Assembly (NCBI GenBank): GCA_000310025.1
Contig: FN649738.1
Coordinates: 492,149-556,148, forward strand
DNA length: 64,000 nt
From: Ectocarpus siliculosus
Taxonomy: Eukaryota > Sar > Phaeophyceae > Ectocarpales > Ectocarpaceae
Direction of reading: 5' to 3'
How positions within the stretch are numbered: position 1 is the first letter of the stretch; every line of letters begins with the position of its first letter. The position numbers and the translations under genes are program-made. Shown piece by piece: positions 5,309-14,286 of the stretch. The notes beneath the pieces are model-generated. The model was not told where the DNA came from, ran no database searches, and worked only from the letters and a program-made list of their open reading frames with translations.

Positions 5309-6886
5309 CGCTTGCACCGCTGGTGGCACCACCACGACCTGCCACAGAGTACAGCGTACAAAATACAGAGGACAGAGGACAGCGGACAATTGTCTCCTGG
5401 CTCAGCCTGCACAGGTGTGTGCAGCTTTGTTCAGGACGTGGGAGGGGGGGTATGAGCGGCCCCGCAAAATGAGGATCTGAAACGGCCGGCATTCCAACAA
5501 CAAAAAAATCCCGACGACAGAGAGAAGAGAGAGACAGGAAACCGAGCGCGCGCGGCACGTCTGCGTGCCCCTTGCAGCTTCACCTACGCCAAGCTCGCAG
5601 CGCAAAGTTGGATCACGAGCTAACGGTAACGGACGCAGGAGCGAATCGCAGGCCTTTGACAGAAACTCTACAATATTATCTTCAACACCGCTGTTTCGAT
5701 CCGCCGAGACCTGCTGGCAAAGGTGACGTCGGGTTACCTCGGAGGTGTTGTGTCCCGGCGAGAGTGCACCAGAAAATTCACAGACCCTTCTACGCTGAGG
5801 CGTTCAGCTTCACAACGGGGGTAAGACGCGGGCGCTTTAAGGTGTTGTTGTTGTTGACCGACTGAGGCATGTATGCCATGTATCATGCCCCAGCCACCGA
5901 CCAGCCACCGAAAGAGCGTCGTCGCTGACGTGAGAGGGACGGAGTTTGTTCTCTCGTTGTGTGTGTGCATCAGGTCGAGCCATGGACGCTGTTGTTGGGC
6001 TTAGATAAAGCTTTTTTATGCATTCTGGTCTCGACATATTTCGAGCGTGCGCGTTCCGTATTGATGGAAAGTATTCGGTGGGCTCTCGGGGTAAATGACA
6101 TCGTCTGGATCACCGCACCGGCTGCACCAGAGGAGTTCGCGACAAGTTCCTGGCGAACACACAGCAGTACAGACAAATTCGCAGTAAAAACACCATCTGC
6201 ACGAGACAAACAACGTTCTAGTCTAGTCTCTAGAACCTGTAGTCTGTTGAAGTCTCTAAATTTTAGTCCTTCCGGTTTACGTACATTTGTGCTCCCACAA
6301 GAAGTGATTTCCCCCAACTGACGAACCTCCAGTCCAAGAGAAAATACGAAAATGTTTGTACGGTATGAACATCCACCGGTCAGCTGTAGAACACGCACGG
6401 GAAAAACTCACCGAGGTTCCTTCTTCATATTGGTTGATAGGCGATTTGACGTTATGCCTGAAAGTTCGGCAGGATGCGCAGAGTGCCAAAACTTGTTTTC
6501 TTCACATCGACAGCGCGCGCTTGGTCACCTATGGCAGCGGTGTGGCGACGGGCATATCGATCCGCGACCTGCTATTTGTTACCTACGGCCACCGCACGGC
6601 CTATTAGCGGCCGCACACTGGTCGAGAACGCGGCGAGAGGGCGCTGGAGAGGGTTAAGGCTAGGAACCAACGCCCGACCAATCAGAGGCGTGAAACCGCG
6701 TCGATAGGAAGAGTCATTAACAGGCCGAGATACATATGATGGTAGCTATCGTGTTCCGTATGGCCGCACCTGCGACGGTGGTGTGGTTCTCGCACCGAAA
6801 CGTGAAACATCCATACCTTCTGCCCGACGTGTGCAACCGCCATGATGCCTTGCGTGCAGGCTGTTGGGAGCATCACGAGATACAGC
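5309..6886. other. Intergenic region between divergent genes
   Basis: About 1.6 kb between the first exon of the minus-strand RUN gene and the first exon of the plus-strand PKA-type gene, so it should hold both promoters. Short open frames occur on both strands but none has a recognisable domain or a convincing splice context. No tRNA, large repeat or TATA pattern was identified. Confidence 0.5.
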
Positions 6887-6919
6887 ATGGGGGCAAAGAA
6901 CTCGAAGAATGAGGACACG
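6887..6919 (+). other. Putative acylated N-terminal exon (MGAKNSK)
   Basis: This 33-nt exon reads MGAKNSKNEDT and ends at GACACG|GTAATT in phase 0, which fits the phase-0 acceptor at 7531. Gly2, Ser6 and Lys7 match the N-myristoyltransferase consensus. Apicomplexan PKA regulatory subunits also carry an acylated N-terminus in place of a docking domain; applying that here is inference. Confidence 0.5.
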
Positions 6920-9900
6920 GTAATTTTTCTGTGTGTCGTTCTAGAGTATAGTACATGCATAGTGCGGTGTTATATGATTCTGTCGGGTTCAGCTCTTCTC
7001 ACGCCATACCCGGGTATTGAGGGTTGAAGGACGAAATTGACTTGTCTGTCGGGCACCCCGCTGTCCCAACTGTGGTGCACCCATGCGTATACCGACATAA
7101 TCAAAGTTTGTTGTGTGCTTAAATCGAATGCAAACGTTACTGGAAGTGGGAGCTGTCGTCAATCCTCGCACGCAGTGCGAGTAGCGGCACGTCACTTTGG
7201 GTTGGAACGCAAGAATATTCCTACTCGGAGAATTGTTTTCCATCTTCCTGTGTTATCTCCATTTTGAGTCCAGCGCTTGCGTCACACTTCCTCCTACACA
7301 CACGGTGCCGTGTTTCCACGTAGTCGCGCCCACCCGTTATATTATCTCTGTTTCACCACAGAACAGTTATGGGTGTGTTTTCTTGGCCACCCCCACAATC
7401 ACGTTCCGCTGGATTATTCAAAAGTCGACGTCGCCACTCGTTCTTTCACGGCGGAGTGTTGTGCAGCGCCACATGTCTCACGACTACATCCCACTGCTGA
7501 ACCTCGCCTGGACTCCGGCATACACAACAGGTAGAGCAAGGGGCAGAGCCACCGCCATCTCCTGTGCCGAAGGGGGCGGTCAACCGCCGCAGACGCTGCA
7601 GTGTCAGCGCAGAAGTGGACGCATCTAAGGTGATACGAAGTATGACCCTGCTGTGCACCGTTCACCCGTACATCAGAGAACACCTTATTGTGCATGCATG
7701 CACCCACAACCGTAGCGAACACGATCTGAAGCATGTTCCACCGCAATTCAGGCTTGGGGAAGCTAAGGCAGATCCGCATCAACGTCATCTCAGAAATATA
7801 TTTCCTTCGCGTTGCACGTTTGGATATGCTGTTGGTGATTTCGAGGCGGAAGTGGTGGAACTACCACCACAATGGCGATAGATAGCTTGCACGGTCAGCA
7901 AGACGAGTTGCTCTGGAGCGCATCGGGTGTTGAGCGCCATACACCAATAACGGGTACTACGAAAACAGTAGCAAATAGCGCCATCCAGTGGGTTACAAAG
8001 CACTCACACAGTCCCCCCTTCGTCCCACAAAAAACAAAGCAAATCATCGACTGATGGACTCTTGTATATCCTGAAGAATCTAACAAACCACGAACCGTCC
8101 AAGGTGTGCATGCCCTTCCAACAATTATCCGATGGAAGCGATCACCTTGTTTCGGCAGGCACCACGGATAGACGGGTTGCCTCTGCAAAAATCATAAAAA
8201 CGAAGGCAATGACTCCCCGTACAATCTGCCCAGAACATACCGAATATGTTTTTCTTCTTGTCGGGAAAGGAGGCTTTTCAGCGACCAAATAGTCACCCAG
8301 GCATCCCCCCGATCTGCGTACAACAGAATATCGCAGGCTTTCCTAAGATATAGAGGAAGCAAAGCAAACGTCCTGTTTCTGACCCCCGCCGAATGCCACA
8401 GGCACCCCGCGTCAAGAAGGTAGTTCCCAAGACCGATGCGCAGCTGAAGGACATCGAGAAGGCTATCAGCAGATGCTTCCTGTTTTCCTCGCTATGTGAA
8501 GCTCAGCGCAAGGAGGTAGGTGTGTTGGCCTGGAATCCACCTTGTTACCACAGTATATCCCCATGCGTTTGGGCCGTGTCTGGTTTCCATGGTTTATACG
8601 TTCAGCTTCGAATTTTCCTTTTCCTGTCTTACACCTTTTCTTCGCTTGCAACCCATCTACTTTGTACCTTTGGTGTTCGATGTTTCTGATGGTTGTTGTT
8701 CTTGGTTCCCCACCACGCGTATCTTTCTGCCTTTCGTGGAACAAGGCGTTCATCGCTCGTCGCGACTGGTGTCACGTGATGTTCGATTGCTTTTATTTGT
8801 CATGAAGCGTTGCACGTGTCTTCGTTTGCTGCAAGTTTTCGTAAAACATACCTTTTTGCACCGCTCTGGTACCAGAGGGAGATTGACTCTCCGCTCCATG
8901 CCGCCCTCTTGAGCAAGAGCAAGAAAATTAGCAAGCCACGTTCAGTAGAAAGGCCACACAACCTGCCGACGGGGCATCGCTTCAATCCGTTGGCTGATGT
9001 TCTAGTAATGTCGACAATGTACCTTCATGTCGTATACCAGGTGGTTGACTCCATGGAGGAACGGAGGTATCAGTCGGGCGACGCTGTCATCGAGGAGGGG
9101 GGGCCCGGGGACTTCTTTTACGTCACGGGCTCGGGCGAGCTCGAGGTGCGTCCCTCGAGATCTCCTTGCACTATGTTGTTGTTGGTGCCGCTGTGCCGAT
9201 GCAGTTAGCTGCTGCTTCGAATTTTTGTACTTTCTTGAGCTCCAACCTAAGGTTTTAAAGGGAATTCCTTGGTCGGACGCAACGCTGCCGTGGTCCTCAG
9301 TCAGCTCGGCCTTCTGTACCTCGTTCAAAATGCTAGTTCTGGTGGTGTCCACAATTCCAGGGACGTAACCGGTACGCAGTGCAGGTACAGCACGGCAAGA
9401 TATGCGTTGGGGTTTGTGAATGTCCCCGAAACGTCCTTCCTGACCTTCAAGATGCAAGCCAGAAGACTGTACGCGATCGGTCTGTTGAGGAAAAGTGTGC
9501 TTGTTGGGCACAGTGCATGCTGAGCACCCAGGTCGTCGTCGCAAATTAACACGGCGTCACACACAGCTGTTTGAGTGCACGATCGCATTGCCAATGGACG
9601 AAAATTTTTCTTGCGTGACACCAGGACGCGAAAAATTCGAACACGCAAAGTTGACGCAATGATTAGCTCGATTTTCGCTGTGCTATGTTAGTGTGTGTCC
9701 TGCGATAAGTTGATTTTGGTGACCAAGGTCGAACGCCGAACCTGAAAACGAAAGCGGCGAGGATGAATACTCAGCTAAGCTGTTGTCCCCTTTTCCTCTC
9801 CCCCGCCTCACGGTGACAGCCGTATACAGTTCTACCATGGTTTCTCTTATCCGTCACACATCGGCCGTGTCGGTTCCTAAATACTAGTGAAGGCAGACAA

Positions 9901-12900
9901 CGTTGATTCCAAGCACGTATACGATAGCGGCGGGAACGTGTGCTGGGGTGCATTGCTCCCCCACACGGCATGCGTCAATAGCCGCATTCCGTTGTTCTCC
10001 ACGATATCTCCACAATAGCACATCTCTTGGGGACTGACCTTGTCACTCCCTTTCGAGATCAATGTCTGGTACAGAAACCGGAAGGAGCCTACGGTGTGGC
10101 CCTCCTTCTCCCAACGGACGACAAAGCTGAAGATATGGGGACGAAAAGTCGAACTTTTCTTGAAAACTGACCTTTAACTAGGGCACTAAGGAGTGATGCG
10201 GTGACTGTCGTTATGTTGTGACGGTTCTTTCCACAATCCTCAGGCGTGGCCACTACCGCCGAGAAGTCATGGGTGATGACATCGCTCGGCTGTGGTAGCT
10301 GGGGACCTTACCGCCCCAGCCTTCCATTCTCGCTGCTCCCTAACATATTGAATTTAGATTGGAGCAACGGTGAGCTTGACGGACTGTCGGATGAACATTT
10401 CAAGAAGCGAAATATGAACTACACCACGACGATTGCGTGAAGACCCCCCAATAAATCGCCGTTGCCACCCGCTGCCGCTCGCGTGCGCTTCGTCGTTCCA
10501 AATGTCGCACAAAACTAGGTGTTCATCGCGGGGAAGAACAACGATGAGCCCCTCCGCACGCTCAAGTCCGGCGACGCCTTTGGCGAACTTGCCCTCATGT
10601 ACAACTCCCCTCGCACAGCCACCGTCAAGGTATTGCGTCTAGATTAGAAAACCATTGCCTCACGGTGGAGAACTTAATTTAGCCCACGGACATTCCATCG
10701 TCAAGATCATAGGGCCCAGGAAGCAGCCCAACCGTCTTCAACTCCCGTCGTACAACCAGCCTTAACAGTCTTAACAAGGTCTTGTTTTTAGATTGATTGA
10801 GTCAGACATGGTCATCGTTGGTCGAGCGACGTACCGCGTTGCGCAGCTAATGGGCACATCATGGCAAGAAAGCCAACAAGAAATACACTCCCTCCCCCTC
10901 GCTGCACTTCTAACACCTCTAGCAACCCTGCCGAACGTTTGGCTCATCAAAGCCTAAGACTTTCCTTTCCTGTAGGCGAAATTTGGTCCAGGTACTGAAA
11001 CAGTGACTGTCTACGGCAGTACGTGCATCAAGATGGTGCATGACACCTAGAAGGGTTCTACCCTAGCACCAATCCAACCAAGAACAACGCTACGCGCGTA
11101 TTCAGGCGGTGACGGGGTGCTTGGTTTGGGCGCTGGATCGCACAACATTCCGGCACACCATCCTTGAGGCTGGGCAGCAGCGCCGCCAGAAATACGAGGT
11201 CTTCCTCGCCAACGTGAGTCCTTTCGGTCGATGCGGTACATCGTAGGGGAAGCGCTGGAGGTATGTCGTCGGCTGGACTCGCTTTAGCGGCGTCGCCAAG
11301 AGGCACGAGGTCTCCTTTGCTACCGGAAAGCTGTTGCATATCCTCCAGGTTTTGTATCGAACACATCGACGGGAGGGGGTTGGTATCATGTCTTGACATC
11401 AGAGTCACGACAACGAAATGACAAGGCCATACCAAACATCGTATGAACCACTCGATGTGCCGCACGAACGCCAAGCGTTGTATTTTTGGCAGGCTGAAAG
11501 CCGAGATCATTTGCCAACTTCAACTTCAAAACAACGATAGTGGGTATCGTTTCATTTGCCCTTCGTGGTCTGGTAGACGTGATTTGCTTTTTACGTGGGC
11601 GTACCTCCCCATTGCATCACAGGTGGCCTGAGATACCGCACCTCGGTATAAATGTTTTGAGTTGAAAAAATACGTCACGCATGTTCCGAACGGGCGTGGG
11701 ATCTTCGGTGCCATTTGATTCTCTGAAGAGTGAATTATCATCGTAGTATGCCATTTCGTGTGCGTCTTGAGTGGCACCAGGTCGGCCTCTTGGTGGCGTT
11801 TTCCGTAGTCCTCTTTAAAAGGGGATGATATCTTGCGCGGGCATGGTATCTGTATTCGCCGTCGGCAGCCTCTATCTCAGGTCCTGACTACTCCCTCGGA
11901 CGTCAACCAGGTCTTGTTCTTATGTTGCTACGTTGCTGATGCTGCCGTTATCTCCGCAAAATAATATCGATTTTCAGGTAGAAATCCTGAAGCGCGCGAA
12001 CCTCAGCGCGACGGACATCGCGCAGCTAGCGGATGCCGTGGAGCCCATCGCTTTTGCCGATGGTGAGGGCGGACCAAACAGCCTTGATTTGAGACATGTG
12101 CCAGAAAAAGTAGAGAAGGGGAACGAGCAACACATGTACCATTCAAATTGTGCGTGTTCGTCTTATCTGTTCTGGCGCCAGTCTTCCGATTGTTCGGTGT
12201 AGATGTTTGGCGTATCAGCCGGAGTCACACTGGGAGGAAAACATGTACATGACGCTAGCCTGGATAGAACAATGAAGGACAGGCGGCGTAGAGACGCTGT
12301 AGACGTTACCAAGTATTCGTTCGTCCGTGCGCACCAAGAGTCAGAGCTCCGCGTATTCTCCTGTTGAGGCGTCGGCAGCAGCTCACCCATAACTGTCAAG
12401 GACGTCTGAGTCGATGATGATTTCTAGCCTCAGTGGTTTTCGTGCTACAGTACTGCACGCTACACCTGCAGGTATCGCGTCAACGTGCTCATTATCATGT
12501 ATCAATGTGCGTCACTCCCCCCCGAAGGTGACACGATAATCAAGGAGGGCGATGACGACCGGAGCCTGTTCAAGTTTTACATCGTGGAGGACGGGGAGGC
12601 CAGGGCGTACGTGCATGAGGACGGGGAAGAAGTGCTCATGAGCCATCTGCACCCGGGTGAGATCGAAACATCCAAGATACGGGGGGCGGGGGGTGGCAAT
12701 TGACTGCAACGCACCACCTGAACGAGTTGGCCAAGGACATGCACCCCTTTCGAGGTGGAGCGGTATGGGGGGAGAGAGAGAGATGAACGTACGTGCCGAT
12801 TGTTTGTACGCTGGTTCCGGTTTAGAACAAGAACAACGGAGATTTACAAGGTCGGGGTTCGTTCACTATACGTTCGGAACCTGGTGCTGCCACAGGGCAT

Positions 12901-14286
12901 CCTAAGGATACTCAACACATGGTTAATGATATGGTGCAAAGTTTCCAAGGAGAAGAAGACACCATGCAGAAGAGATAACAAACAGCTTCTTGTACGGCGA
13001 CGAGATTGAATGGACAAGAAAAAATGACAGAGAAGCTACCAGCGCGCGGAACAGGGGCATTTTTGTGAACGGCTTTAGCCTAGCGTGAGTATTGCAGGAC
13101 AAGGGTGTGGGGCACCCTGCGCTCGAGGTTCGAGGGCAGCATGCATGCACTCCATCTGATTAGGGGGGGATGTTCGGGTAACCATTCTCAGCACAACAGT
13201 ACCGTGTAAGGAGAAGCTCGCCACTCTCAAGAACGACGGGAACAAGCAATGGCAAGGTGCAGCTACTTTTTCTTTCTGTACATGCGAACGCTCGCCCTTG
13301 GCTTAGAAAAGAAACTACGACGACGCGCATAATCTGCTTGTGGTAAGGTTTCAACATGTATGCGCGATGCACCCAACGAACGTCAGGTGACCATTTTGGG
13401 GAGAAGGCCTTGGTCGAAAAAACACCCCGGACGGCCACCGTGAAAGCCCACGGCCCCCTCAAGTGCGCCGCCCTCAGCATCGCTGGTTTTGAGCGGCTCA
13501 TGGTGAGAAACGTTGAAAACATGGTGGATCACGGAAATATGATACCTGCTGTAGTCTGCTTACAATAACATGTTGATGAAAGCAGATCTGGTTCCGCGTG
13601 TCTCGCTTTCGCACACAATATGTGGCGTTTCGGTGTGCCGAAGGTGTCTTGCAGCTCGGCTTACTTATGGCAGCGCAAAACTTTCGAATAAATACCCTGT
13701 GTTCTCTCTGAACGCGTCGCAAGGAAGAGCGCGGGGTTGGGCCAACAAATATTGCCCGGGGGTTCAATGATCGGGGGACACAAAAGCGACGAATGGAGGT
13801 TGTGGGGTGACGTTCTCATGGCCGTGGTTCACGTTCACACGTTGCCGTATCCGCAATTGAAAATTGAGGATGACGCGAGGAAATAGCTAGAGCCAATGGG
13901 GTAGATAGATCCACATGTGTTGTTGTTTCCTTCGCGCTAATTGCCGGTCCAACCGACCCGGAAGTCTTTGGTGGCCACAGGCCAACTAGCCTAAAGGGCA
14001 TAGACTACACCACGAATACCAAAGATAAAACGAATGTGAATAGGACGGAAAAAAAAATGAGCGTAGGGACAATACACCGGGGTGGAGGAGCGTCAATGTG
14101 TGGCGTTCGATGTCACAGGTACGTGTCGTTGCCTATCTTGTTTCTCAATCTCTGATCCTGGTGTCGGCCTGCCACGGTTCGTCCTTGACAACAAAACAGG
14201 GCCCTTGCGAAGACATCCTTACCACCGCTTACAACAATCCCGCGGATGTAAAGACCGGAAGGCAAACTCCTAGGGGAGGGGCTTGA
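6887..14286 (+). CDS. PKA-type cyclic-nucleotide-binding regulatory subunit
   Basis: Ten exons, all in phase, give 328 residues: 6887-6919, 7531-7629, 8402-8515, 9041-9145, 10519-10629, 11106-11213, 11978-12062, 12528-12656, 13387-13502 and 14200-14286. Order: N-terminus MGAKNSKNEDT (myristoylation-type), Pro-rich linker, inhibitor site RRRRCSVSAEV with Ser35, then KKVVPKTDAQL as in RI/RII subunits. CNB-A follows (phosphate cassette FGELALMYNSPRTATV, Glu140/Arg149), then CNB-B (FGEKALVEKTPRTATV, Glu267/Arg276) and a C-terminal GPCEDIL helix. Such subunits hold the catalytic kinase inactive until nucleotide binds. No dimerization/docking domain and no kinase domain are seen. The stop is TGA at 14284. 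Thr follows the cassette Arg in both sites, as in PKG. The domain exons are firm; the first 11-residue exon rests on its motif and phase only. Confidence 0.85.
7531..7629 (+). other. Inhibitor-site exon of the regulatory subunit
   Basis: An acceptor ACACAACAG precedes VEQGAEPPPSP and the donor AAG|GTGATA follows. The core RRRRCSVSAEV aligns with the RI-alpha pseudosubstrate region (RRRRGAISAEV) but carries Ser at the phospho-acceptor position. It would therefore be an RII-like substrate site that the catalytic subunit can phosphorylate. Confidence 0.8.

What the first reader, a model, noticed from the sequence alone, without database searches (positions are those of the whole stretch)
10519..13502. 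Both nucleotide pockets carry the PKG-type Thr after the phosphate-cassette Arg
The cassettes read PRTATV (Thr150) and PRTATV (Thr277) where PKA subunits have PRAATV, and CNB-B opens FGEKAL as in PKG. In PKA/PKG studies Ala-to-Thr at this position raises cGMP affinity. A kinase-free regulatory subunit with PKA architecture may therefore respond to cGMP, or to both nucleotides.
Basis: partly seen in the sequence, partly recalled or inferred. Interest (0 to 1): 0.7.

Follow-up and report, generated by a model that had tools for sequence, protein, structure and literature searches.

The report
PKA switch with cGMP-type binding pockets
A probable brown-alga gene encodes a protein kinase A off-switch whose messenger pockets carry amino acids that normally mark cGMP sensors, so it may answer to cGMP as well as cAMP, which would be unusual because protein kinase A is generally held to answer to cAMP.

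Summary
A ten-exon gene (6887-14286, +) encodes a 328-residue protein with two cyclic-nucleotide-binding (CNB) domains, an RRRRCSV inhibitor site and no recognisable kinase or docking domain. Both cassettes read PRTATV (Thr150, Thr277). It is a PKA regulatory subunit, best matched by RI-alpha and RI-beta. Its genome also encodes a PKA catalytic subunit.

Thr alone is weak: human PKG I CNB-A has it and prefers cGMP only about two-fold. CNB-A here also has Leu129-Arg130 in beta-5, exactly 20 residues before Thr150. Leu, Arg and Thr at these places are the guanine contacts of the cGMP-selective domain of Plasmodium PKG. Engineering Arg and Thr there into RI-alpha gave equal cAMP and cGMP affinity. 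CNB-B has only the Thr (Ser257 at the Arg position), plus Tyr311 in the register of PKG's capping Tyr351. None of 8 tabulated PKA-R domains has that Arg or Thr; 3 of the 8 have Lys at the Arg position.

Best reading: a PKA regulatory subunit answering to both cAMP and cGMP, a new variant of a known kind. Binding was not measured and no stramenopile orthologue was available.

The parts
6887..6919 (+). Exon 1: MGAKNSKNEDT. The G2/S6/K7 pattern resembles an N-myristoylation signal. In-frame ATGs at 6842 and 6845 make the start uncertain.
   Evidence: the motif itself is recalled
7531..7629 (+). Exon 2: inhibitor site RRRRCSVSAEV, aligned with RRRRGAISAEV of RI-alpha; Ser where RI-alpha has Ala
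8402..8515 (+). Exon 3: PKA-R linker PRVKKVVPK and start of CNB-A
9041..9145 (+). Exon 4: CNB-A, N-terminal beta strands (GDAVIEEGGPGDFFYV)
10519..10629 (+). Exon 5: CNB-A beta-5 Leu129-Arg130 (Arg codon 10555-10557) and cassette FGELALMYNSPRTATV with Thr150 (10615-10617), all in one exon
11106..11213 (+). Exon 6: end of CNB-A and inter-domain helix
11978..12062 (+). Exon 7: start of CNB-B; a Thr lies where RI-alpha has Trp in DKWERL (Trp260 capping role recalled)
12528..12656 (+). Exon 8: CNB-B beta strands; Met256-Ser257 at the PKG Leu-Arg position (Ser codon 12641-12643)
13387..13502 (+). Exon 9: CNB-B cassette FGEKALVEKTPRTATV with Thr277 (13431-13433), followed by HGPLKC as in RI
14200..14286 (+). 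Exon 10: GPCEDILTTAY..., C-terminal helix and stop; Tyr311 (14230-14232) lies 34 residues after Thr277, as PKG I-beta Tyr351 lies 34 after Thr317
   Evidence: Tyr351 from PMC4412288, Thr317 recalled

Best explanation
The gene encodes the separate regulatory subunit of a protein kinase A in a probable brown alga. Its RRRRCSV segment would occupy the active site of a free PKA catalytic subunit. When a cyclic nucleotide fills the two CNB domains, the catalytic subunit is let go. CNB-A has the residues that recognise guanine in PKG (Leu-Arg in beta-5, Thr after the cassette Arg). CNB-B has the Thr and a PKG-register capping Tyr but not the Arg. It should therefore bind cGMP and cAMP with similar affinity and release its kinase in response to either, unlike animal PKA. 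Shown: gene model by homology, residues, their register, and the presence in the genome of genes for a PKA-C, CNB genes with kinase exons downstream, and two class III cyclase genes. Inferred: the start codon, pairing of this R with that C, which messenger each cyclase makes, nucleotide affinities, and membrane attachment by N-myristoylation in place of a docking domain.
For: PKA-R identity: RI-alpha/beta are the top five PDB hits, colinear over query residues 11-308 including inhibitor site and linker; two CNB stretches and no kinase in Pfam. Free PKA-C gene on contig C20: 223.7 bits to PKA-C alpha against 171.5 for the best PKG listed. Register: Arg130 to Thr150 is 20 residues, as R473 to T493 of PfPKG CNB-D (PMC4412288) and T192 to A212 of RI-alpha. 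Table: Arg at -20 in 0 of 8 PKA-R CNBs, 3 of 4 Plasmodium PKG CNBs and 3 of 9 other CNBs of this genome, those 3 lying upstream of kinase exons or motifs. Ser/Thr at +1 in 0 of 8, 4 of 4 and 5 of 9. RI-alpha T192R/A212T binds both nucleotides equally, and in cells the CNB-A mutant but not the CNB-B mutant (G316R/A336T) answers 8-CPT-cGMP (PMC4565163, a meeting abstract, whole text). A cyclase on C24 matches a guanylyl cyclase receptor best, narrowly (48.4 bits; adenylyl cyclase 5 at 46.4), and has an acidic residue where adenylyl cyclases have Lys (rule recalled).
Against: No binding data. CNB-B lacks the Arg. Thr without the Arg gives only about 2-fold cGMP preference in PKG I-beta CNB-A, and HCN channels have Thr yet prefer cAMP (recalled). 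Lys sits at the Arg position in 3 of 8 PKA-R CNBs (Plasmodium CNB-B, both of Toxoplasma) and in PfPKG CNB-A, so a basic residue there is not confined to PKG. Thr after the cassette Arg also occurs in a Toxoplasma protein of another kind (PCR12) and in this genome's C43 CNB, which has no Arg. No stramenopile orthologue was reachable, so Arg130 or Thr could be private to this genome. No structure was modelled. Kinase-fused CNB genes in the same genome are more obvious cGMP targets. A class III cyclase with an adenylyl-type Lys is present on C14.
Confidence: 0.55

Rival explanations
1. An ordinary cAMP-selective PKA regulatory subunit. Thr and Arg are tolerated lineage variation and cAMP still dominates in the cell.
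For: CNB-B lacks the Arg, and a basic residue (Lys) at that place is tolerated in 3 of 8 PKA-R CNBs; Thr alone barely discriminates in PKG I-beta CNB-A; [quoted passage not shown] an adenylyl-type cyclase gene is present.
Against: The guanine-contact residues occur together in CNB-A at exact PKG spacing, and 0 of 8 tabulated PKA-R CNBs have the Arg or the Thr. The same two changes made in RI-alpha abolish cAMP preference.
Confidence: 0.3
2. A cGMP-selective regulatory subunit: a split PKG in function, built from PKA parts.
For: Arg and Thr in CNB-A, Thr plus PKG-register Tyr in CNB-B; a cyclase gene closest, though narrowly, to a guanylyl cyclase is present.
Against: In RI-alpha selective activation by cGMP needed Arg+Thr in both domains, four changes; CNB-B has Ser257 in place of the Arg.
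Confidence: 0.12
3. The pockets answer to a different ligand, such as nucleosides, as in trypanosomatid PKA.
For: Precedent in PMC10959531.
Against: Both phosphate cassettes keep the cassette Glu and the phosphate-binding Arg (FGE...PR), whereas the trypanosomatid pockets have glutamates that clash with the cyclic phosphate.
Confidence: 0.03

Closest known systems
Animal PKA RI-alpha / RI-beta
   Same: RRRRxxx inhibitor site, linker, two colinear CNBs, GPLKC and GPC-DIL segments of CNB-B
   Different: Thr instead of Ala in both cassettes, Arg in CNB-A beta-5, Ser in the inhibitor site where RI-alpha has Ala, no docking domain found, caps not at the RI positions (RI caps recalled)
Plasmodium and Toxoplasma PKA-R
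   Same: Free R subunit, lacking the docking domain (PMC5746546, PMC6152992; passages); Toxoplasma PKAr1 has an acylated N-terminus
   Different: Ala in all 4 cassettes tabulated; Thr or Lys at the beta-5 position
PKG (human PKG I; Plasmodium PKG CNB-D)
   Same: Leu-Arg in beta-5 plus Thr (in CNB-A here); capping Tyr register as PKG I-beta (in CNB-B here; partly recalled)
   Different: No fused kinase; PKA inhibitor site and linker; Arg absent from CNB-B
Engineered RI-alpha T192R/A212T (PMC4565163)
   Same: The same two positions and residues in CNB-A, here occurring naturally
   Different: This protein also has a CNB-B Thr without Arg, comparable to A336T alone
Fucus vesiculosus male-biased PKA-R (PMC3652789)
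   Same: A brown-algal PKA-R listed with Ectocarpus protein CBJ34040 as its match (passages)

Membership tests
PKA regulatory subunit (R) | Two tandem CNB domains, no kinase domain in the polypeptide | tested here: met
   Pfam: cNMP_binding in 2 stretches, no other family at E up to 0.01; no kinase motif by regular expression in the window
PKA regulatory subunit (R) | Inhibitor/pseudosubstrate site upstream of CNB-A | tested here: met
   RRRRCSVSAEV aligned with RRRRGAISAEV of RI-alpha
PKA regulatory subunit (R) | Near full-length colinear similarity to known R subunits | tested here: met
   E 1.4e-60 to RI-alpha, query residues 11-308 of 328
PKA regulatory subunit (R) | Dimerisation/docking (RIIa) domain; not universal: reported absent in Plasmodium and apparently in Toxoplasma PKAr1 | tested here: not met
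   No RIIa in the protein; the single genome hit at E up to 0.1 is on contig C23. A diverged domain in a missed upstream exon cannot be excluded.
PKA regulatory subunit (R) | Binds and inhibits a PKA catalytic subunit | not testable with these tools
   A PKA-C gene exists; pairing untested
PKG | CNBs fused to a C-terminal kinase domain | tested here: not met
   Stop at 14286; no kinase motif found in the window
cGMP-type CNB pocket | Thr (or Ser) after the cassette Arg | tested here: met
   Thr150 and Thr277
cGMP-type CNB pocket | Arg in beta-5, 20 residues before that Thr | tested here: inconclusive
   Met in CNB-A (Arg130), not in CNB-B (Ser257)
cGMP-type CNB pocket | Measured cGMP preference | not testable with these tools
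   Needs a binding assay

The most novel reading that the evidence does not exclude
A naturally occurring PKA regulatory subunit that carries the PKG guanine-recognition residues in CNB-A and couples a separate PKA catalytic subunit to both cGMP and cAMP. It would be a further exception, beside trypanosomatid PKA, to the rule that PKA answers to cAMP, and a natural case of a switch known to me only as engineered.
Probability: 0.5. Interest if true: 0.7.

Novelty: new variant of a known kind. Interest (0 to 1): 0.5.

Why it matters
PKA and PKG are treated as separate wires for cAMP and cGMP. [quoted passage not shown] A free R subunit carrying PKG's guanine contacts makes 'can PKA be a cGMP receptor in nature?' directly testable with one recombinant protein. 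Diatoms, also stramenopiles, induce guanylyl cyclases during sexual signalling (PMC5485032, passages), and a PKA regulatory subunit is strongly male-biased in the brown alga Fucus (PMC3652789, passages). A cGMP-capable PKA-R would be a candidate effector; that link is inference.

Tried and rejected
Considered and rejected: that the gene is a PKG whose kinase exons lie further on (stop at 14286, no kinase motif found in the window). That Thr is simply the default in this genome (other cassettes there have Ala, Ser, Asn, Lys or Thr). That FGEKAL is a cGMP marker (Lys308 of PKG I makes no contact with cGMP).

Led nowhere: relatives in viral contigs and in prokaryote genomes, none confirmed (both scans reach close relatives only). 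A natural cGMP-binding PKA-R in print: none among the papers listed, which showed 0 to 15 papers each; I did not read most of them, so this is weak evidence of absence. One search held a badly chosen phrase and says nothing. A word search in one book of meeting abstracts gave nothing relevant. Two papers are not held. One search asked whether PRNASV cassettes resemble a known type and gave only general CNB matches. No structure was predicted: the spliced protein is not contiguous in the DNA and I did not send it.

Limits of the residue table: its fragments were copied by hand from earlier outputs. Of the 19 CNB matches, 2 are this gene; the table holds 9 rows from the other 17. L010 (PRGESV) and L014 (PRSASV), both on C346, have cassettes but were left out. 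L007, L008, L013 and L016 do not reach a cassette; L011 and L017 lack a standard one. The CNB-A of the C3 gene, read later (L033), is FGHLALMYSKPRSASV (His for the Glu, Ser at +1) and is not in the table. For PKG the table has Plasmodium falciparum CNB-A, B and D and one further CNB-D (5dyk); the degenerate CNB-C and the other domains of 5dyk are left out. Yeast, Euglena, RII and trypanosome PKA-R are not in the table because their sequences or beta-5 residues were not printed. The C25 CNB-A row has a one-residue shift before the cassette, so its -20 residue is unreliable. The cassette regular expression was mis-specified and found nothing; no conclusion rests on it. The kinase scan can miss motifs split by introns.
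Full report
What is there. Reading the + strand exon by exon gives a ten-exon gene (6887-6919, 7531-7629, 8402-8515, 9041-9145, 10519-10629, 11106-11213, 11978-12062, 12528-12656, 13387-13502, 14200-14286). All nine introns begin GT and end AG, and the product has 328 residues. Coding GC is 61% (third positions 75%) against 50% in the introns. The finding's range is exons 5 to 9. Thr150 and Thr277 are as stated. The start is uncertain: ATGs at 6842 and 6845 are in frame with 6887.

What family. The best matches among solved structures are PKA RI-alpha and RI-beta (E 1.4e-60 and 3.3e-59), colinear over query residues 11-308 and 5-308, including an inhibitor site RRRRCSVSAEV against RRRRGAISAEV and the linker PRVKKVVPK against YVRKVIPK. 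Pfam finds cNMP_binding in two stretches and no other family at E up to 0.01. No kinase motif was found in the window by regular expression. It is therefore a free PKA regulatory subunit. No docking domain was found, as reported for Plasmodium PKA-R (PMC5746546, passages) and Toxoplasma PKAr1, which instead has an acylated N-terminus (PMC6152992, passages). MGAKNSK at the modelled N-terminus fits an N-myristoylation signal (motif recalled), but only if translation starts at 6887.

Its partners. The genome (189 Mb, 492 contigs, unnamed; probably a brown alga from size, composition and intron density, which is inference) holds a free kinase on C20 whose joined pieces match PKA-C alpha at 223.7 bits against 171.5 for the best PKG listed. 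Other CNB genes have kinase exons or motifs downstream on the same strand: C25 and C3, C4 and C483, and a kinase-like exon 5 to 6 kb beyond the CNB on C43. On C479 one kinase-like VAIK motif follows. Of the 19 matches to the window protein, 9 are this gene and 10 lie at seven other places. I recognised no second kinase-free two-CNB PKA-R among them, but C13:3.02M is unresolved: one cassette and no kinase motif in the 9.9 kb read. A class III cyclase on C24 matches the guanylyl cyclase of the natriuretic peptide receptor best (48.4 bits, E 8.7e-12; YKLDTVGDAFVVV against YKVETIGDAYMVV), but adenylyl cyclase 5 follows closely (46.4 bits). One on C14 reads IIKFCGDAV, with the Lys typical of adenylyl cyclases (residue rule recalled). 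Both messengers can plausibly be made.

What decides cGMP against cAMP. In PKG I-beta CNB-A, Thr193 contacts the 2-amino group of cGMP, but the domain prefers cGMP only about two-fold; beta-5 there has Leu172-Cys173 (PMC3080414, passages). In the cGMP-selective CNB-D of Plasmodium PKG, Thr493 acts together with Leu472-Arg473 (PMC4412288, passages and one section); EC50 values were 37.8 nM for cGMP and 7.4 uM for cAMP. That domain also has a capping triad (R484/Q532/D533) that matters for affinity, and this protein's CNB-A has Leu at the R484 position. Putting Arg and Thr into RI-alpha CNB-A (T192R/A212T) or CNB-B (G316R/A336T) made it bind both nucleotides equally; with both pairs it was activated selectively by cGMP. 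[quoted passage not shown] Shabb 1990 on the Ala-to-Thr change I know only from its title in a reference list and from recall.

Applied to this protein. CNB-A has Leu129-Arg130, twenty residues before Thr150, in the same exon: the PKG arrangement. CNB-B has Met256-Ser257 before Thr277: Thr only. Among comparison domains, Arg at that position occurs in 0 of 8 PKA-R CNBs (RI-alpha, RI-beta, Plasmodium, Toxoplasma; two each), 3 of 4 Plasmodium PKG CNBs and 3 of 9 other CNBs of this genome (C3 CNB-B, C4, C483). Lys is there in 3 of the 8 PKA-R CNBs and in PfPKG CNB-A. Thr or Ser after the cassette Arg occurs in 0 of 8, 4 of 4 and 5 of 9. Yeast and Euglena PKA-R also lack Thr: Ala in CNB-A, Gln and Val in CNB-B. 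Tyr311 lies 34 residues after Thr277, the spacing of Thr317 to the capping Tyr351 in PKG I-beta (Tyr351; Thr317 and the intervening sequence recalled). The RI-alpha Trp in DKWERL is aligned with a Thr (capping role recalled).

How it most likely works. The inhibitor site docks in PKA-C; nucleotide binding at both CNBs releases it. By analogy with the engineered RI-alpha, CNB-A should take cGMP and cAMP about equally. CNB-B should resemble PKG I CNB-A or RI-alpha A336T: cGMP affinity raised, cAMP not excluded. I expect dual responsiveness (0.55), ordinary cAMP selectivity (0.3), or cGMP selectivity (0.12).

What was not tested. No stramenopile orthologue was reachable: searches found no relative, but those collections hold viral contigs and prokaryote genomes. 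No binding or structure was computed.

Noticed in passing
L045 (C25:4105000-4114900): A CNB gene with kinase exons downstream on the same strand has Ala in its CNB-A cassette (FGELALMYNIPRAAT) and Lys in CNB-B (ETRKAT): in this genome a probably kinase-fused protein has the PKA-type residue while the free R subunit has the PKG-type one.
   Followed up: partly
window 6842-6919: Two in-frame ATGs upstream of 6887 would add up to 15 residues and remove the myristoylation-like start; a possible acceptor (gtgcag) lies between them and 6887.
   Followed up: partly
L057 (C20:229500-233500): A free AGC kinase with PKA-C features, a candidate partner of this R subunit.
   Followed up: yes
L051 (C43:222901-232800) with L043: A CNB with cassette PRTATV but His at the beta-5 position, with a kinase-like exon (VGDPHYMAPEQ) 5 to 6 kb downstream.
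   Followed up: no
L005/L046 (C13:3022031) and L001/L044 (C479:937797): CNBs with Asn after the cassette Arg (PRNASV), a residue in none of the PKA-R or PKG domains tabulated; a PDB search with one of them gave only general CNB matches.
   Followed up: partly
L033 (C3:4788308-4788454): CNB-A of the C3 gene reads FGHLALMYSKPRSASV: His replaces the cassette Glu that binds the ribose.
   Followed up: no
L007 and L008 (C346, C9): Near-identical CNB exons on two contigs, perhaps a recent duplicate or haplotype copy of a multi-CNB gene.
   Followed up: no
L020 (C23:3626730): The only RIIa docking-domain match found in the genome at E up to 0.1; contig C23 has no CNB match.
   Followed up: no
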